The notes beneath the pieces were generated by a model. That model was not told the origin of the DNA. It saw only the letters and a program-made list of their open reading frames with translations, and did no database searches. From an uncultured Lachnospiraceae bacterium (GTDB taxonomy: Bacteria > Bacillota > Clostridia > Lachnospirales > Lachnospiraceae), in the NCBI GenBank assembly GCA_947564645.1, contig CANOCU010000009.1, positions 1-64,000 on the forward strand: a stretch of 64,000 nucleotides of DNA, read 5' to 3'. The first letter of the stretch is position 1. Every line of letters starts with the position of its first letter. The position numbers were made by a program, and so were the translations under genes. Below are positions 4,374 to 26,774 of the stretch, piece by piece.

Positions 4374-6179
4374 TCATGACTCCTTCTTTGATTCAATACA
4401 GGGCAGCTTGTAGGATACGGAGGTATATTCGCCGGGGATGCTCTCGACAAGCAGCCCGAACTCTTTGCCATATAGCAGGCGTATCCGTTGGTGAATATTG
4501 TAAAGACCTATTTGGTCCGAAAGATTTTCGGAGTCTCTGTTCGAAGCGATTCTCTCAAGCTCCTCATCTGTGATTCCAATCCCGTTATCGGTTATGCAGA
4601 TAGAAAGAACAGATCGTACCCGGCTGGCAGTGATCTCCACTCTTTTATCAGATCTTGTATTCTGCGCGAATCCATGCTTGATCGCATTTTCCAGAATGGG
4701 CTGCAGGATAAATTTCGGAACGATGCATTCCTGCAGTTCTTCGGGAATCGTACAGGTGTATTGAAAAGCGCCCATATAGCGGAAATTCATAATTGTCATG
4801 TAGTTGTCTGCAATCTCCATCTCTTCTCTTAAGGTTACGATATTCTGGTCGTTTCGGGCACAATACCGCAGAAAGGAAGTGAATTTGTCGATCATGTCCG
4901 CGACAGGAACGGCGCCCTGCAGTTTGGCCATCACTTTGATTGACTCCAGTGTATTATAGATGAAGTGAGGGCTGATCTGTGACTGCATGGCGAGCAGTTC
5001 GATCTTCATCTTTTCCTTTTCTTCGGCTTTGATCTGAATGATTAGATTTCTTATGTGTTCGATCAGATGATTATATGTCTCAGCCAGTTTTCCGATCTCA
5101 TCGTTGGACATCTTAAAGTCGATGGCACTGTAATTATCACTGTCCTGTGTCTGTGCCATCGCATTTTGCAGGGAAACGACGGGAATGGTTATTTTGCGGA
5201 CGGAAACACGGATCGTTGCCAGAAGCAGGAAGAGCATGATCAGGGTGACCGATGTTATCCCCAGGATATAAACTTTGTTCATCTGAACGAGCTCGGATAA
5301 GGGGGTGATATTGATGATGCGGATTCCGTTGGCGTCGGGCGCGGAAATACTGGCAAAACATAAGGCGCCGTTGTACTTGTGAATGCTTCTGCGCGGTTTG
5401 TCTTCATTTTTCCCACTTTGACTGAGATATATTTTCTGCAGTTGATCGATTTCCGGAGCGGACAGTTTCTCACTGCCGATCATGGTATCCTGCCAGCAGA
5501 TATAATTCCGGCTTTGCTTCGTCTGTCCGTCAGTATCGCAGAACTGCCTAAACTGCTCCATGGAAACATTCAGAAGAAATACGCCCATAAGACGGTTGTT
5601 CTGCAGCGGATTGATGATCGATCTTCCGACGATGATGGTGTCCGGGTGGGAAAGTAGCAGCGGATTTTCCAGAACGATCTGTGTCGTGATCTTTCCGTTA
5701 TTATTGACAATGTTTTTGTAAAAATCATATTCGGTAACGTCTGCGGATGGCGCGATCGTTGCGTCGGCTCTGTAGTAGTGATCGTAGTTCTCAGGAAAAA
5801 GGAACACAGACGAAATGTTGCTGTTCAGATGAAGGAAAGTGATCAGGCGGTCTTCTACCTTCTTATTTGACTGGTATTTCATCAGCACCTCTTTACCCGG
5901 ATACTCGGAATAATCAAGGGAAAGCACGTCCTGGATTTCCGGATCCAGGACGACGTAATTCGTCAGATCTTTCATGGATGCCAGAAAATTATCGATGCCG
6001 GTGAGGATGATCTTATTTTGATAATCCAAAGAATCGGCGGCAGTCCTGATCGTCTGATTTACGATGATCGCCATGGAAATGATCAGAAATACAAACGTAG
6101 GTAAAAAGACTCGCAGTATAATCAGCTTAAAAAACTTGGTTTGAATTGACTGAAATTTATCTTCTTTTCTTGCTCTCAT
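4374..6179 (-). CDS. Sensor histidine kinase (YesM-like)
   Basis: A membrane histidine kinase of 601 residues. One membrane segment lies at about residues 18-41 and another at about 303-325, leaving a ~260-residue extracellular sensor region. A HAMP-like linker follows, then the His_kinase box QSQISPHFIYNT (His405) and a HATPase domain with LQPILENAIKHG (Asn498) and DNGIGI. It is the partner of the AraC-type regulator directly downstream. Kinases of this class sense an extracellular sugar, sometimes through the binding protein, and switch on the neighbouring ABC operon. The gene diverges from the binding-protein gene across about 138 bases. Confidence 0.9.
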   Translation of the reverse strand: MRARKEDKFQSIQTKFFKLIILRVFLPTFVFLIISMAIIVNQTIRTAADSLDYQNKIILTGIDNFLASMKDLTNYVVLDPEIQDVLSLDYSEYPGKEVLMKYQSNKKVEDRLITFLHLNSNISSVFLFPENYDHYYRADATIAPSADVTEYDFYKNIVNNNGKITTQIVLENPLLLSHPDTIIVGRSIINPLQNNRLMGVFLLNVSMEQFRQFCDTDGQTKQSRNYICWQDTMIGSEKLSAPEIDQLQKIYLSQSGKNEDKPRRSIHKYNGALCFASISAPDANGIRIINITPLSELVQMNKVYILGITSVTLIMLFLLLATIRVSVRKITIPVVSLQNAMAQTQDSDNYSAIDFKMSNDEIGKLAETYNHLIEHIRNLIIQIKAEEKEKMKIELLAMQSQISPHFIYNTLESIKVMAKLQGAVPVADMIDKFTSFLRYCARNDQNIVTLREEMEIADNYMTIMNFRYMGAFQYTCTIPEELQECIVPKFILQPILENAIKHGFAQNTRSDKRVEITASRVRSVLSICITDNGIGITDEELERIASNRDSENLSDQIGLYNIHQRIRLLYGKEFGLLVESIPGEYTSVSYKLPCIESKKES

Positions 6180-23180: not shown

Positions 23181-23597
23181 ATGAAGACAATACGGGTAGC
23201 GGCGGCGATTATCTGCGACGATATGGAAAATCCCGCGAAGATATTTGCGACAGCCAAGGGATATGGGGAGTTCAAAGGACAGTGGGAGTTTCCCGGAGGC
23301 AAGATCGAGGCAGGAGAATCCTCTGAGGAGACGCTTGTCAGGGAGATCAGGGAAGAACTGGATACGGAGATTGAAGTGGGCGCACTGTTCCATACCATTG
23401 AGTATGACTATCCGGCATTTCATCTTTCCATGGATTGTTTCCTGGCGAAGGTGAAGACGGGCGGCCTGACGCTGAAGGAGGCGGAGGCGGCCAGATGGCT
23501 TACAAGAAGGGAACTGTATGAAGTGCAGTGGCTGCCGGCGGATATTTCGCTGATAGAGGTGTTGGAAAAGAGGATGACTGGCACAGATGCTTTGTAA
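23181..23597 (+). CDS. NUDIX hydrolase (MutT-like)
   Basis: A 138-residue NUDIX enzyme of the MutT/8-oxo-dGTP diphosphatase type. The NUDIX box runs from GGKIEAGES to REIREELD (about residues 39-64) with all metal-binding Glu residues. The GQWEFPGGK lead-in and the following EYDYPAFHLSMDCFLA are typical of MutT, which cleans oxidised purine nucleotides from the pool. GAAGGGAG precedes ATG 23181. After its stop comes the dyad promoter that drives the ADP-ribosyltransferase cassette. Confidence 0.9.
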   Translation: MKTIRVAAAIICDDMENPAKIFATAKGYGEFKGQWEFPGGKIEAGESSEETLVREIREELDTEIEVGALFHTIEYDYPAFHLSMDCFLAKVKTGGLTLKEAEAARWLTRRELYEVQWLPADISLIEVLEKRMTGTDAL

Positions 23598-23601
23598 AAA
23601 G

Positions 23602-23636
23602 TATAGTTAACGGCATTAGAAATTTCGTTTACTATA
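23602..23636 (+). promoter_or_regulatory. Dyad promoter of the ART cassette
   Basis: TTAACG (23607-23612) and TACTAT (23630-23635) are 17 bases apart, a plausible sigma-A promoter. Around it, TATAGTTAACG (23602-23612) is an almost perfect inverted repeat of CGTTTACTATA (23626-23636), with one mismatch. An operator placed over the whole promoter would suit repression by a protein from the cassette. Closely related sequences occur at 43137-43165 and, more degraded, at 28601-28632 and 57529-57551. Confidence 0.65.
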
Positions 23637-23681
23637 AGTACAAAGCAGACAGGCATAGAAGGAACAGGAAGTGAAGTTTGA

Positions 23682-23897
23682 ATGAGTGAGAGAGAGCAGA
23701 TTATCTATATGCAGACCAGACTGATCAGGCTGGCGTCTGAAAAATGGAACCGGCCAATAGACCAGATTGCCAGACTATTTGCAAAGCACGGCGTGTTAAA
23801 GTATATAGAGGAATGTTTTGAAATTTTTCATGTGGAGGGCGATGAAGCGATCTTAGAAGATATTGAGGGATATCTTAGAAACAGAGGGGTAATATGA
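23682..23897 (+). CDS. Small protein of ART cassette (DUF3791-like)
   Basis: A 71-residue protein resembling DUF3791: EREQIIYMQTRLIRLAS, then LFAKHGVLKYIEECFEIFHVEGDEAILEDIEGYL. Small DUF3791-type proteins are commonly encoded next to DUF3990 ADP-ribosyltransferase-like proteins in Clostridia. The stop overlaps the start of the next gene (ATGA), so translation is coupled. By position and size it is a candidate antitoxin, immunity or accessory protein; this is an inference. Confidence 0.75.
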   Translation: MSEREQIIYMQTRLIRLASEKWNRPIDQIARLFAKHGVLKYIEECFEIFHVEGDEAILEDIEGYLRNRGVI

Positions 23898-24463
23898 GAA
23901 TGCAGGAATTGGTAAATGACATGATCTTGTATCACGGAAGTTATTGCGAGGTGCAGACGCCAAGGCTGCAATACTGTGCCAAACATAAAGATTTTGGTCA
24001 GGGATTTTATTTGACCACATCTCGTGATCAGGCTGAAAACTTTGCGCGGATCAGTACCAGAAGGGCGGTTGCTAATGGACATGTTAGCGCAGACAGGCGC
24101 TATGGGTTTATTTCCGTATACAGGCTTCAGTCTGTTGAGGGGCTTTCGATCAGAGTTTACCAGACGGCGGATGCAGAATGGCTTCACTGTGTGGTTGGTC
24201 ACAGGAAAGCGCGATCTTTTCCGGATTTGATCCGGGAACTTGGCGAGATGGATATCATCGGCGGAAAAATTGCCAATGACAATACGAATGCGACGATAAC
24301 GGCATACATGGCAGGTGCATATGGGCAAGTAGGAACATGGCAGGCTGATGATATATGTATCAGCCTATTGCTTCCGGAGCGGTTACAGGATCAATTTTGT
24401 TTTAGAACGAAAGCGGCGCTTAAGCGTCTTGCATTTGTGGAAGGCAGGCAGATATGGCTATAG
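23894..24463 (+). CDS. ADP-ribosyltransferase-like protein (DUF3990)
   Basis: A 189-residue DUF3990 protein with the ADP-ribosyltransferase fold. It opens with ILYHGSYCEVQTP (His14), followed by the DFGQGFYLTTSRDQAENFA block (Tyr39), EWLHCVVGHR and a late DQFCFRTKAALKRLAF (Gln167 in the position expected for the third triad residue). An H-Y-Q-type active site would be compatible with an ART toxin or DNA/protein modifier. Both small genes around it overlap it. I infer an ART toxin with two cognate small proteins; no direct evidence of toxicity is available from sequence. Confidence 0.8.
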   Translation: MRMQELVNDMILYHGSYCEVQTPRLQYCAKHKDFGQGFYLTTSRDQAENFARISTRRAVANGHVSADRRYGFISVYRLQSVEGLSIRVYQTADAEWLHCVVGHRKARSFPDLIRELGEMDIIGGKIANDNTNATITAYMAGAYGQVGTWQADDICISLLLPERLQDQFCFRTKAALKRLAFVEGRQIWL

Positions 24464-24687
24464 AGAAGGTGGTTTCTGAGGAAACAAAAAAGAATGCGAT
24501 TGACTTACTGGTGACTATGGTAGTGGATGAACTGGCTGAAGAGATGAGCGTGCCGCCGGAAGAATTGCTGTCGGAGTTTATTGCGTCCAATACAGGAAAG
24601 CTGCTCTATGACGAGACTTCGAAGTTGTGGTGGAGCGGGCCGTCGGATCTTGCAGAAATGTATAAAAAGGAAATAGCGGGAAATTAA
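24454..24687 (+). CDS. Small protein of ART cassette
   Basis: A 77-residue protein that overlaps the ART gene by ten bases. It starts with a helical, acidic region (MAIEKVVSEETKKNAIDLLVTMVVDELAEEM) and continues with VPPEELLSEFIASNTGKLLYDETSKLWW, ending in GPSDLAEMYKKEIAGN. The C-terminal KLWWSGPSDLAEMY segment recurs in small partners of clostridial ART-like genes as I recall, which is weak evidence. It is the second candidate antitoxin or accessory protein of the cassette. Confidence 0.7.
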   Translation: MAIEKVVSEETKKNAIDLLVTMVVDELAEEMSVPPEELLSEFIASNTGKLLYDETSKLWWSGPSDLAEMYKKEIAGN

Positions 24688-24696
24688 AAAAATATC

Positions 24697-24727
24697 TTGA
24701 CTCCTACGTTACGTAATAGTTTATTGT
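24697..24727 (+). promoter_or_regulatory. MerR-type promoter/operator
   Basis: TTGACT (24697-24702) and TATTGT (24722-24727) are 19 bases apart, the long spacing that MerR regulators correct by twisting the DNA. The spacer carries the dyad TACGTTACGTA, as in promoters of TipA-like regulators. It lies ahead of the MerR gene at 24866 and so is probably autoregulated. Confidence 0.7.
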
Positions 24728-24865
24728 ATACTTACACGGGAAAATACAAAAAAGAAAGCCTATGATTGCAGTCCTGCCTCCCTGCCGTGCCGAGCGTACA
24801 CATGCCATACAGATACGCAGCAAAGCGGCAGGATGCAGACACAGACGCAACAAGGGGAAAGATTC

Positions 24866-25675
24866 ATGGTAAGGATGACAGTAAAGGAAGTAAGTAAATT
24901 GACGGGAGTGAGTATACGCACTCTCCAATATTACGACAAGATCGGACTTTTGCCGCCGACGGGTTATACGGAGTCCGGTTACCGGCTGTATGACGATACG
25001 GCTATGGAAAGGCTGCAGCAGATTTTACTGTTTCGGGAATTGGAATTTCCGCTGAAGGTGATCGGAGAGATTCTGTCCGGACCGGACTTCGACAAGGACA
25101 AGGCGTTGGAACAGCAGATCATGCTGTTGACGCTGAAAAAGGAGCATCTGGAACGGTTGATCGATTTTGCCCGTGGAATACGTTTGACAGGAGGAAGGAC
25201 AATGGATTTTTCAGTATTTGATCAGCAAAAGATCGAGGAATACAAAAGACAGGCAAAGGAGCAGTGGGGCAATACGGCCGAGTACAAGGAGTCGGTTCAA
25301 AAGGCAGCAGGCAGAAGCAGTGAGGAAGAGAAGGCGGTGATGGAGAATTTCATGCAGATTTTTGCTGAATTTGGCAGACACAGGGATGCCTTGCCGGAAT
25401 CTGCCGATGCACAGGAGCTGGTGAAGAAACTGCAGGATTTGGAAAGCAGCGGTATAACATGTAAGAAGGAAATGGGGACTGCCCCGACGGCGCCGGATCT
25501 GACGGCGCTGACGGGGCAGTTTCTATATAGGTACTGTCGACTGATTGCATTAACTATATGGGCATTCAACTACGCAGTCAATGACAAGACAGTGAAAAGA
25601 TGTTATTATAAAACAAATGTAGTAGATATCGTCAATTTTAGTTATGCGAAAAGAATGCGACGGAGGACAAAATGA
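24866..25675 (+). CDS. MerR/TipA-like regulator with damaged C-terminus
   Basis: A MerR regulator of 269 residues as read. The N-terminal DNA-binding domain is intact (MTVKEVSKLTGVSIRTLQYYDKIGLLPP), followed by the coiled dimerisation helix and the start of a TipAS ligand domain (FSVFDQQKIEEYKRQAKEQWGNTAEY and FMQIFAEFGRHRDALPESADAQELVKKLQD). After about residue 192 the TipAS sequence stops and the frame reads through a terminator-like hairpin and a promoter of the next gene, so the last ~75 residues are not real domain sequence. The ligand pocket must be incomplete. ATG 24866 follows GGGGAA. The stop overlaps the XRE gene start. Confidence 0.75.
   Translation: MVRMTVKEVSKLTGVSIRTLQYYDKIGLLPPTGYTESGYRLYDDTAMERLQQILLFRELEFPLKVIGEILSGPDFDKDKALEQQIMLLTLKKEHLERLIDFARGIRLTGGRTMDFSVFDQQKIEEYKRQAKEQWGNTAEYKESVQKAAGRSSEEEKAVMENFMQIFAEFGRHRDALPESADAQELVKKLQDLESSGITCKKEMGTAPTAPDLTALTGQFLYRYCRLIALTIWAFNYAVNDKTVKRCYYKTNVVDIVNFSYAKRMRRRTK
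25478..25524 (+). terminator. Terminator-like hairpin inside the MerR reading frame
   Basis: ACTGCCCCG (25478-25486) pairs with CGGGGCAGT (25512-25520) followed by TTTCT. It lies in the tail of the MerR open frame, where the TipAS domain should be, which suggests that this DNA was originally intergenic. Confidence 0.6.
25581..25609 (+). promoter_or_regulatory. Probable promoter of the XRE gene
   Basis: ATGACA (25581-25586) and TATTAT (25604-25609) are exactly 17 bases apart. The site lies 63 bases before the XRE start at 25672 but still within the MerR open frame, further support for the frame being a read-through. Confidence 0.6.
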
Positions 25676-26094
25676 GACGCAGACCGGAATATGACAGAAG
25701 AATGATCGGAGAGAACCTTCGGAGATGCCGTCAGCGGAGGAACTTGTCCGTTGAGCAGGTCAGGGAATATCTTAACATAGGTTCCCTTCAGGCGATCTAT
25801 AAGTGGGAAGAAGGTAAGAGTTATCCGCAGACCGATACGATGTTTGCGTTGATGGAATTGTATGAGATTGAACTGCGGGATTTATTGGATTGTTCCAGGA
25901 CAACGGATTTCGTAGATGAAGGAGAGACTGGCCCTGAGAATATACCGCAGATTACCCTGTGTTGTACGTTAGGTACGGTCGGCGGGTTTTTGACGATTGA
26001 AAAGGAAGGTGTTGGAAAACGGCGAAGGATATATACGGAGTTGATACACTATATGTCTAATGGTCATCACCAGATGGTGGGAGGCGTAACATAG
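25672..26094 (+). CDS. XRE family helix-turn-helix protein
   Basis: A 140-residue protein with an HTH in residues 10-65: MIGENLRRCRQRRNLSVEQVREYL, then GSLQAIYKWEEGKSYPQTDTMFALMELYEI. The C-terminal ~60 residues (after DLLDC) are unassigned and contain a Cys-rich ITLCCTLGTVGGF segment. Its ATG overlaps the MerR stop, but it probably has its own promoter at 25581. A PIN-like gene follows 26 bases downstream. Confidence 0.75.
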   Translation: MRRRPEYDRRMIGENLRRCRQRRNLSVEQVREYLNIGSLQAIYKWEEGKSYPQTDTMFALMELYEIELRDLLDCSRTTDFVDEGETGPENIPQITLCCTLGTVGGFLTIEKEGVGKRRRIYTELIHYMSNGHHQMVGGVT

Positions 26095-26120: not shown

Positions 26121-26774
26121 ATGTTGTTTCTGATCGATTATGAGAATGTGGGAAACGCAGGCATGAGAGGATGCAGTCTTTTGAATGCGCAGGATCATGT
26201 GATCGTTTTTTACAGTGATGCCAGTAAGAATATGGAGCGTGGAAGTCTGGAGGAGATCAGCGCTTCGGAGTGTACCTTTGAAGTCTGTAAGCTTTGCAAG
26301 GCAGGGAAGAATGCCCTGGACTTTTATATTGCATCCAGACTGGGGGAGATGATCGGCGGCGGTTATATGGGAAGTGTGGTGATCGTCAGCAGAGACAGCG
26401 GATTTCAGGCGGTTCGGGATTACTGGAACGTGAGGGCGCCACATAAGAGGAAGGTATTGCTGCAGCCGTGTATTGAGGACGGTGTTATAAGCGGCAATAA
26501 GGACAGTGAGCTTGTGAAGGAATTGAAGCGAAGGCATGAGAACCTTGCCATTGGAGATTATTATTCTGTCTGGTCGAAAAGAAGAAAGACGAAGGAAATT
26601 CTACAGAAGCTGTTTGCCGGCACGGAGTATGAGGATAAGACCGACGCGATCTTTTGTCTGTTGGAGGGTAAGAAGAAACATCCGAGAGAAATTTACCTGG
26701 GCAGTCTGCATTTATTCGGACGCAAGGATGGGCTGGCGATCTACAACAGGATCAAAGCATGTGACAAGCTGTGA
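26121..26774 (+). CDS. PIN-like domain protein
   Basis: A 217-residue protein with a PIN/NYN-like N-terminal domain: LFLIDYENVGNAGMRG (Asp6, Glu8), GKNALDFYIASRLGEMI (Asp67) and VVIVSRDSGFQAVRDYW (Asp92). These acids are spaced as in metal-dependent PIN nucleases. The C-terminal half is a helical part with a Lys/Arg-rich stretch (WSKRRKTKEILQKL). The family is common in Firmicutes as a stand-alone RNase-like protein of unknown target. ATG 26121 has GGGAG upstream. It ends in a terminator. Confidence 0.8.
   Translation: MLFLIDYENVGNAGMRGCSLLNAQDHVIVFYSDASKNMERGSLEEISASECTFEVCKLCKAGKNALDFYIASRLGEMIGGGYMGSVVIVSRDSGFQAVRDYWNVRAPHKRKVLLQPCIEDGVISGNKDSELVKELKRRHENLAIGDYYSVWSKRRKTKEILQKLFAGTEYEDKTDAIFCLLEGKKKHPREIYLGSLHLFGRKDGLAIYNRIKACDKL

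What the first reader, a model, noticed from the sequence alone, without database searches (positions are those of the whole stretch)
23602..24687. Three-gene ADP-ribosyltransferase cassette under a dyad promoter
A DUF3990 protein with an ART-like layout (His14, Tyr39, Gln167) is overlapped on both sides by small genes: a DUF3791-like protein before it (ATGA overlap) and a 77-residue protein after it (10-base overlap). The promoter is an almost perfect inverted repeat that covers both -35 and -10 boxes. The layout is what one expects of a toxin held by one or two antitoxins that also repress the promoter. Whether the toxin is real and which small protein counters it is not known to me.
Basis: partly seen in the sequence, partly recalled or inferred. 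Interest (0 to 1): 0.8.

Follow-up and report, generated by a model that had tools for sequence, protein, structure and literature searches.

The report
ADP-ribosyltransferase toxin with split antitoxin
Three tiny overlapping bacterial genes look like a mobile toxin-antitoxin cassette whose enzyme resembles PARP-type ADP-ribosyltransferases and whose antidote seems to come as two small, probably related proteins; the proposed promoter switch turns out to be a common genomic repeat.

Summary
The three overlapping genes are real: DUF3791 (A), DUF3990 (T) and a 77-residue protein (C). T models at pLDDT 94 with a PARP-like ART fold; His14, Tyr39 and Gln167 are nearly invariant in 165 aligned rows. 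A-T-C stand in that order in 79 of 80 fetched close relatives (the exception is cut by a contig end). The triad moves as a ~1.02-kb cassette, and a same-genus genome has the site without it. PADLOC already catalogues it, untested, as phage-defence candidate PDC-M13. New here: profile evidence, uneven in strength, joins it to PDC-M10 (ART plus one protein resembling A and C fused) and PDC-M42 (ART plus an A-like protein, with either an XRE HTH or a NADAR gene beside it). Best reading: an ART toxin held by a split antitoxin, probably for defence or addiction; a guanine base as target is analogy only. Toxicity, neutralisation and phage defence are untested.

The parts
23682..23897 (+). A: DUF3791 protein, 71 aa, candidate antitoxin half 1
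   Evidence: PF12668 E 5.7e-17; PADLOC PDC-M13C 1.2e-10 and PDC-M13A 1.3e-8; His50 invariant in 73 aligned rows; fused to DUF3990 in 4 loci of the 200-genome lists
23894..24463 (+). T: DUF3990 protein of ADP-ribosyltransferase fold, 189 aa, candidate toxin (start may be 23900)
   Evidence: PF13151 E 8.7e-35; PADLOC PDC-M13A 3.3e-35; AlphaFold2 pLDDT 94.0, pTM 0.89; Foldseek top hits PARP catalytic domains, best E 5.3e-4; His14-Tyr39-Gln167
24454..24687 (+). C: 77-aa acidic four-helix protein (pI 4.3), candidate antitoxin half 2, probable distant paralogue of A
   Evidence: PADLOC PDC-M13B 1.9e-9 and PDC-M13C 1.1e-7; model pLDDT 90.3, no significant PDB neighbour; hhalign A_all vs C_all 79.7%, E 1.5e-5, but 12% and 18% with window-type rows only
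23602..23636 (.). 35-bp palindromic repeat, one of many dispersed genomic copies; not a triad-specific operator
23578..24687 (+). segment between the matched flanks that is absent from the NUDIX-MerR junction of same-genus genome G200 (114 bp of other sequence between the match edges there)
   Evidence: locus L192

Best explanation
A tripartite toxin-antitoxin cassette. T is an ADP-ribosyltransferase of the H-Y-[E/D/Q] type (fold and residues shown by model and alignment; NAD use inferred). A and C, two small and probably paralogous proteins made from the same overlapping gene set, together act as a split antitoxin that binds and silences T (inferred). Loss of A or C, for example during phage infection or after loss of the cassette, frees T, which would ADP-ribosylate an essential target and stop growth (inferred). 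The likeliest target class is a nucleic-acid base such as guanine, because homologous ARTs in PDC-M42-type operons travel with NADAR, a family reported to remove guanine ADP-ribose; for the window's own subfamily, which lacks NADAR, this is analogy. The cassette spreads horizontally as a unit (shown) and probably serves anti-phage defence or addiction (inferred).
For: ART fold and residues. A-T-C order in 79 of 80 fetched relatives, which are the best 80 of 515 by similarity to T; the exception is cut by a contig end. Other orders in other genomes: T-C-A (7 loci read; the middle gene of one, L091, was recognised only by PADLOC), A-T-A' (4 read) and A::T fusion followed by C (4 read). In 9 loci of the 200-genome search the third gene itself matches PF12668, 6 of them above cut-off. 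M10B: N part to A 73% (A_all), C part to C 31%; PADLOC C-type model 04444 in 8 of 31 members and A-type model 04446 in 7 of 31, at E up to 0.05. M42B: A-like 68% with T-C-A rows; 18 of 25 aligned members carry an HTH region. 8 of 43 NADAR matches lie within 600 bp downstream of a listed DUF3990 match on the same strand (searches compared by hand); 5 intact ART-antitoxin-NADAR operons read; that NADAR is PADLOC PDC-M42C. Cassette exchange: 87.6-87.7% identity over 1022 bp, ends at the triad's edges, flanks unaligned. Site without the triad in G200. Two decayed DUF3990 genes in the own genome, one beside an intact M10B-type partner. DUF3990 is the C-terminal domain of a Serratia T6SS Rhs protein with a predicted immunity gene downstream (PMC4524185, passage).
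Against: No toxicity, binding or phage data for any member were found. No complex model was made and A was not modelled. Profile results are uneven over the 23 pairings run: A-C falls to 12% (and 18%) with window-type rows only; A_tca and A_win against M10B score 4% and 3%, the former no better than its decoys (4-8%); C_tca against M10B 0.6%; A_all against M42B 3%; no C-type match in M42B. NADAR is absent from the window and, at threshold, from its genome. Decay is not strictly toxin-first: the C40 partner is broken too, and of the four NADAR loci with a partner but no whole ART, L174 keeps only part of the partner and L178 has a broken NADAR. Nine fetched ARTs have no recognised partner. Among 130 neighbours of close relatives no PADLOC family recurs more than 3 times in the 25 of 260 families shown, with no background. 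Foldseek TM-scores are low (0.35-0.46 over the query).
Confidence: 0.72

Rival explanations
1. CmdTAC-like division of labour: one small protein is the antitoxin that also folds T, the other is a chaperone or sensor that protects the antitoxin and reports infection.
For: CmdT has an H-Y-[E,D,Q] triad and needs both CmdA (folding, neutralisation) and CmdC (stabilising CmdA) (PMC11618068, section 6 read). T likewise has two constant partners in its close relatives.
Against: CmdC is a SecB homologue; nothing SecB-like appeared for A or C in Pfam or PADLOC, nor for C in the fold search (A not modelled). A and C look like paralogues with the wide profiles and M10B looks like both fused, which fits two parts of one binder better than antitoxin plus chaperone.
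Confidence: 0.2
2. One of the two small proteins is the whole antitoxin and the other is a regulator or passenger.
For: A can be fused to T. M42B shows only an A-like match by hhalign.
Against: A gene matching C follows in all 4 A::T fusion loci read and in 80 of 80 fetched close relatives; no DNA-binding domain was recognised in either.
Confidence: 0.2
3. Not a toxin: a metabolic or regulatory mono-ADP-ribosyltransferase with two activator subunits.
For: No toxicity test exists; ARTs can act as regulators (established knowledge, recalled).
Against: Cassette-like transfer, a site without it, decayed ARTs beside a whole partner (C2), XRE-HTH and NADAR partners in relatives, distant homologues on 68 of 72,556 plasmids.
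Confidence: 0.1
4. One reading: the dyad is an operator of this operon bound by A or C.
For: An inverted repeat is present just upstream of A.
Against: The repeat is dispersed in many copies and is not the best inverted repeat upstream of A in any of the 29 nearest loci.
Confidence: 0.03

Closest known systems
PADLOC PDC-M13 (phage-defence candidate, untested)
   Same: All three proteins match PDC-M13 A/B/C models.
   Different: Only a computational candidate: the term is in one paper found, as an abundance count of 3324 in rumen genomes (PMC13356809, passage). Mechanism, split antitoxin and links to PDC-M10 and PDC-M42 were not found in print by the searches.
PADLOC PDC-M10 and PDC-M42
   Same: Homologous DUF3990 ART; partner proteins resembling A and C.
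   Different: M10: one partner of about 150 aa (A-C type). M42: A-like partner with XRE HTH (18 of 25 aligned) or without it and then beside NADAR (7 of 25); the two additions did not occur in one locus in this sample. NADAR is M42C.
CmdTAC
   Same: ART of H-Y-[E,D,Q] type with two partner proteins (PMC11618068, abstract, section 6 and passages).
   Different: CmdC is a SecB-like chaperone; none recognised here.
DarT-NADAR and YarT-YbiA ART-NADAR pairs
   Same: ART toxin paired with NADAR, as in the M42-type relatives (PMC11125620, passages).
   Different: The window system has no NADAR; T is DUF3990, not DarT; homology to YarT not tested.
Xre-RES toxin-antitoxin (9r35)
   Same: ART-like toxin with XRE antitoxin; rank 44 in Foldseek; part of the M42B family also carries an XRE-type HTH.
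   Different: Weak structural match (E 0.03); relation of its antitoxin to A or C not tested.
HipBST tripartite toxin-antitoxin
   Same: Precedent for a module spread over three genes with split parts (PMC9325769, cut abstract in the listing).
   Different: There, as I recall the rest, the HipA toxin kinase is split; here the antitoxin appears split.

Membership tests
ART superfamily, H-Y-[E/D/Q] type | ART fold | tested here: met
   pLDDT 94; PARP domains as the 5 Foldseek hits at E<=0.001, best 5.3e-4, probability 0.99; TM-scores modest
ART superfamily, H-Y-[E/D/Q] type | His, Tyr and Glu/Asp/Gln at the catalytic positions | tested here: met
   H14 in strand 11-16, Y39 in strand 38-41, Q167 in strand 164-170; conservation; no residue-by-residue superposition was made
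ART superfamily, H-Y-[E/D/Q] type | NAD binding and transferase activity | not testable with these tools
   needs biochemistry
PADLOC PDC-M13 | matches to the three component models in one operon | tested here: met
   A 1.2e-10, T 3.3e-35, C 1.9e-9; PADLOC's own system rule was not run
PADLOC PDC-M13 | protection against phage | not testable with these tools
   no published test found
Type II toxin-antitoxin | small overlapping operon of toxin and partner(s) conserved as a unit | tested here: met
Type II toxin-antitoxin | toxin harmful alone, protein antitoxin neutralises it by binding | not testable with these tools
   only indirect evidence
Type II toxin-antitoxin | antitoxin autoregulates through an operator | tested here: inconclusive
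   the dyad is a dispersed repeat; no HTH recognised in A or C, but A was not modelled; 4 of 29 relatives have other inverted repeats
CmdTAC | SecB-like chaperone | tested here: not met
   no such match for A or C in Pfam or PADLOC, none for C by fold
DarTG / ART-NADAR | macrodomain or NADAR hydrolase in the operon | tested here: not met
   A and C match neither; no PF08719 match in G000; NADAR present in PDC-M42-type relatives

The most novel reading that the evidence does not exclude
PDC-M13, PDC-M10 and PDC-M42 are one superfamily of anti-phage ART systems in which a two-module antitoxin clamp (A-type plus C-type domains) is variously split, permuted, fused to itself, fused to the toxin or fused to an XRE repressor, with NADAR added where the modification is made reversible; the toxin marks guanine in RNA or DNA, and the split form in the window lets two separate sensors each hold part of the lock.
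Probability: 0.3. Interest if true: 0.75.

Novelty: new variant of a known kind. Interest (0 to 1): 0.55.

Why it matters
PDC-M13 was listed among the highly abundant defence systems counted in rumen genomes (3324 occurrences, PMC13356809, passage), yet no mechanism was found in print by my searches. Linking it to PDC-M10 and PDC-M42, and through NADAR to guanine ADP-ribosylation, gives two Pfam families of unknown function (DUF3990, DUF3791) and an unnamed third family a testable mechanism, and suggests that the antitoxin is the part that evolution keeps splitting and fusing.

Tried and rejected
Dyad as autoregulatory operator: rejected as triad-specific; it is a dispersed repeat and the nearest relatives do not share it. 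Strong defence-island setting for the window subfamily: not shown (130 neighbours chosen by script from 68 loci, the list trimmed from its end so that nothing after L062 was scanned; 25 of 260 families shown; no background). Viral contigs: no relatives by a method that finds close relatives, with T or with the A::T fusion as query. Solved structures by sequence: none for T or C, one non-significant hit for A (E 1.1). C-type match in M42B: not detected. PHROGs and NCBIfam: nothing informative. NUDIX gene next door as an eraser: it belongs to the flank, present at the triad-free G200 site. A complex model of T with A and C was not possible with the structure tool; I considered reading T and C of a relative as one chain through the stop between them and did not do it.

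Full report
Observation. The three genes overlap as described. A is DUF3791, T is DUF3990, C has no Pfam family above cut-off. PADLOC models of the candidate system PDC-M13 match all three: A 1.2e-10, T 3.3e-35, C 1.9e-9. So the cassette was already catalogued as a computational phage-defence candidate. In the held papers 'PDC-M13' occurs in one, as an abundance count (3324; PMC13356809, passage read); 'PDC-M10' and 'PDC-M42' in none; 'DUF3990' in four, two of which I read in passages; 'DUF3791' in one (listing only).

T is an ART-fold protein. AlphaFold2 on 67 aligned sequences gave pLDDT 94.0 and pTM 0.89. Foldseek against the PDB returned PARP catalytic domains first (E 5.3e-4, probability 0.99; TM-score over the query only 0.35-0.46 in the 50 rows shown); an Xre-RES toxin-antitoxin complex appears at rank 44. 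In 165 aligned T sequences from the subfamilies fetched (five places present twice) His14 is kept in 162 of 163, Tyr39 in 163 of 164 and Gln167 in 165 of 165 rows with a letter. The three sit in strands 11-16, 38-41 and 164-170. Pfam places DUF3990 in the ART clan (PMC7955679, passage).

The triad is a unit. One scan of genome contigs with T found 515 relatives, of which the tool kept the best 80. In these 80 plus the window, A, T and C stand in that order on one strand in 80 of 81; L085 lacks A because its contig begins inside T. Record titles include Lachnospiraceae, Treponema, Fibrobacter, Bacteroidales, Ligilactobacillus, Holdemanella and Adlercreutzia. The Ligilactobacillus ruminis copy matches four near-identical copies from Blautia luti, Clostridium fessum, Holdemanella and Fusicatenibacter at 87.6-87.7% over 1022 bp that begin and end at the edges of the triad, the flanks not aligning at E 1e-10; those four share a block of at least 8.8 kb at 99.97-100% (shared contamination of assemblies was not tested). 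Same-genus genome G200 has the NUDIX gene and the MerR gene of the window flanks side by side, with 114 bp of other sequence between the match edges in place of the triad. Distant homologues (all under 60% identity) lie on 68 of 72,556 plasmids, 28 of them predicted conjugative, and in 5 of 50,697 phage records.

The wider family shows how the parts belong together. In 200 genomes of the same family, DUF3990 was found in 113 and DUF3791 in 59. Of 99 DUF3791 matches 61 lie near a listed DUF3990 and 38 do not. Reading 15 of these loci showed four A::T fusions followed by C, seven T-C-A orders (in L091 the middle gene is recognised by PADLOC only) and four A-T-A' orders in which the third gene itself is DUF3791-like. 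Of the 98 without separate DUF3791 I fetched 60 (40 of 59 short-type, 20 of 39 long-type): 31 are followed by an M10B-type protein, 20 by an M42B-type protein, 9 are unassigned (the script's own tally of 33, 22 and 25 also counts the 20 loci, five of them the same places).

Profile comparisons (23 pairings, reversed alignments as decoys; I quote the best and the worst). A_all against C_all: 79.7%, E 1.5e-5, 70 columns, decoys 0.6% or less; with window-type rows only 12% or 18%. M10B: N part to A_all 73% (decoys 0.6-1.4%), but A_win 3% and A_tca 4% (decoys 4-8%); C part to C_all 31% and C_win 27%, C_tca 0.6%. Independently, PADLOC C-type model 04444 hits 8 of 31 M10B members (best 1.8e-6) and A-type model 04446 hits 7 of 31 (best 2.5e-4), at E up to 0.05. 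M42B: about columns 99-152 to A_tca 68% (decoys 0.3% or less), 3% to A_all, no match to C; 18 of 25 aligned members extend into an HTH region (Pfam HTH_3 1.2e-9 and 1.4e-8 for the two scanned). I conclude that PDC-M13, M10 and M42 share the ART and, with moderate support, an antitoxin built from A/C-type modules; for M42B the C part is not shown.

NADAR. PF08719 gave 43 matches in 38 of the same 200 genomes. Comparing the lists by hand, 8 of the 43 lie within 600 bp downstream of a listed DUF3990 match on the same strand; by my own arithmetic (not a call) far less than one is expected. Five loci read in full are ART - M42B-like (138-141 aa) - NADAR with overlapping or nearly touching genes, and the three A::T fusions L087-L089 are followed by C and a NADAR gene. 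The M42-type NADAR is PADLOC PDC-M42C (8.5e-86). The seven NADAR-linked partners aligned have no HTH, and no HTH-bearing locus had a NADAR neighbour in the list. NADARs remove guanine ADP-ribose and act as antitoxins of DarT and of YarT (PMC11125620 passages; PMC11833690 abstract). In L168 the operon lies between HsdM- and HsdS-like fragments; an HsdM-like gene follows in L092 and an HsdS-like fragment in L103. For the window's subfamily the guanine idea is analogy: no NADAR match is in its genome at threshold.

Signs of toxicity, all indirect. The own genome has two more DUF3990 matches. Both lack the middle of the ART; the C2 copy stands next to an M10B-type partner that covers nearly the whole profile, while the C40 partner is itself broken. 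Among 15 further NADAR loci fetched (L172-L186), four keep an M42B-type protein without a whole ART: L173 (ART split over two frames), L175 (only its first residues left, by eye), L178 (no ART found; its NADAR also broken) and L174 (no ART found; partner partial). DUF3990 is also the C-terminal domain of Rhs5 of a Serratia type VI system, with a small predicted immunity gene downstream (PMC4524185, passage).

C and A. C models as four helices (pLDDT 90.3) without a significant PDB neighbour (best E 3.1, some of these weak hits being HTH domains); it is acidic (window pI 4.3; mean of 80 sequences 4.7), whereas window T is basic (pI 8.6; mean of 81 7.2) and A lies between (5.3; mean 5.8). A was not modelled.

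The promoter claim fails as stated. The dyad 23602-23636 is one of many copies of a 35-bp palindrome: 58 forward and 57 reverse matches at up to three mismatches, 16 perfect in the specified bases with the window copy included, control 0. In 29 rows (28 distinct sites) the conserved block is sharply bounded, includes the loop, and 24 of 29 lie outside ORFs of 120 aa or more. In the 29 nearest loci the best inverted repeat upstream of A is another one; in four of them it was not reached in 20 shuffles, so other operators remain possible there.

Judgement. CmdTAC offers the nearest tested logic (PMC11618068, section 6), but its SecB-like chaperone has no recognised counterpart here. Phage defence is plausible, not shown: among 130 neighbouring proteins of close relatives (68 loci selected, list cut after L062) the PADLOC families shown, such as DpdF, type I specificity subunits and PDC-S05, recur two or three times each.

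Noticed in passing
window 23602-23636; other copies in G000 and G208: A 35-bp palindromic repeat, loop included, dispersed through this genome (58 forward and 57 reverse matches at up to 3 mismatches, many sites counted twice) and present in same-genus G208; mostly between genes in the copies sampled; REP-like, not identified further.
   Followed up: partly
L005 (G000:C2) 4825-5612 and L004 (G000:C40) 5179-5950: Two decayed PDC-M10-type loci in the own genome: ART with the middle missing, partner intact in C2 and broken in C40.
   Followed up: yes
L005 5791-6478: Beside the C2 remnant, two small genes that look like an MNT/HEPN toxin-antitoxin pair (recognised by eye, not tested).
   Followed up: no
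L167-L171: ART - M42B-like - NADAR operons; in L168 between HsdM- and HsdS-like fragments of a type I restriction locus.
   Followed up: partly
L071 5549-6238: C protein fused to a flavin-reductase-like domain (PF01613, E 1.1e-9).
   Followed up: partly
window 26121-26774: PIN7-domain protein (PF18475, E 1.1e-22), after an XRE-like regulator at 25672-26094.
   Followed up: no
window 24833-25675: MerR gene whose TipAS domain is matched only over 81 of 117 positions; the tail of the ORF may be altered.
   Followed up: no
window 24681-24741: Block of 39-62 bp before the MerR gene, 82-94% identical in G200, G207 and another own contig (C120): perhaps a conserved MerR-type promoter.
   Followed up: no
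L035, L037, L038, L040: A block of at least 8.8 kb, 99.97-100% identical, in Blautia luti, Clostridium fessum, Holdemanella biformis and Fusicatenibacter records: a recently moved element carrying the triad, or shared contamination.
   Followed up: no
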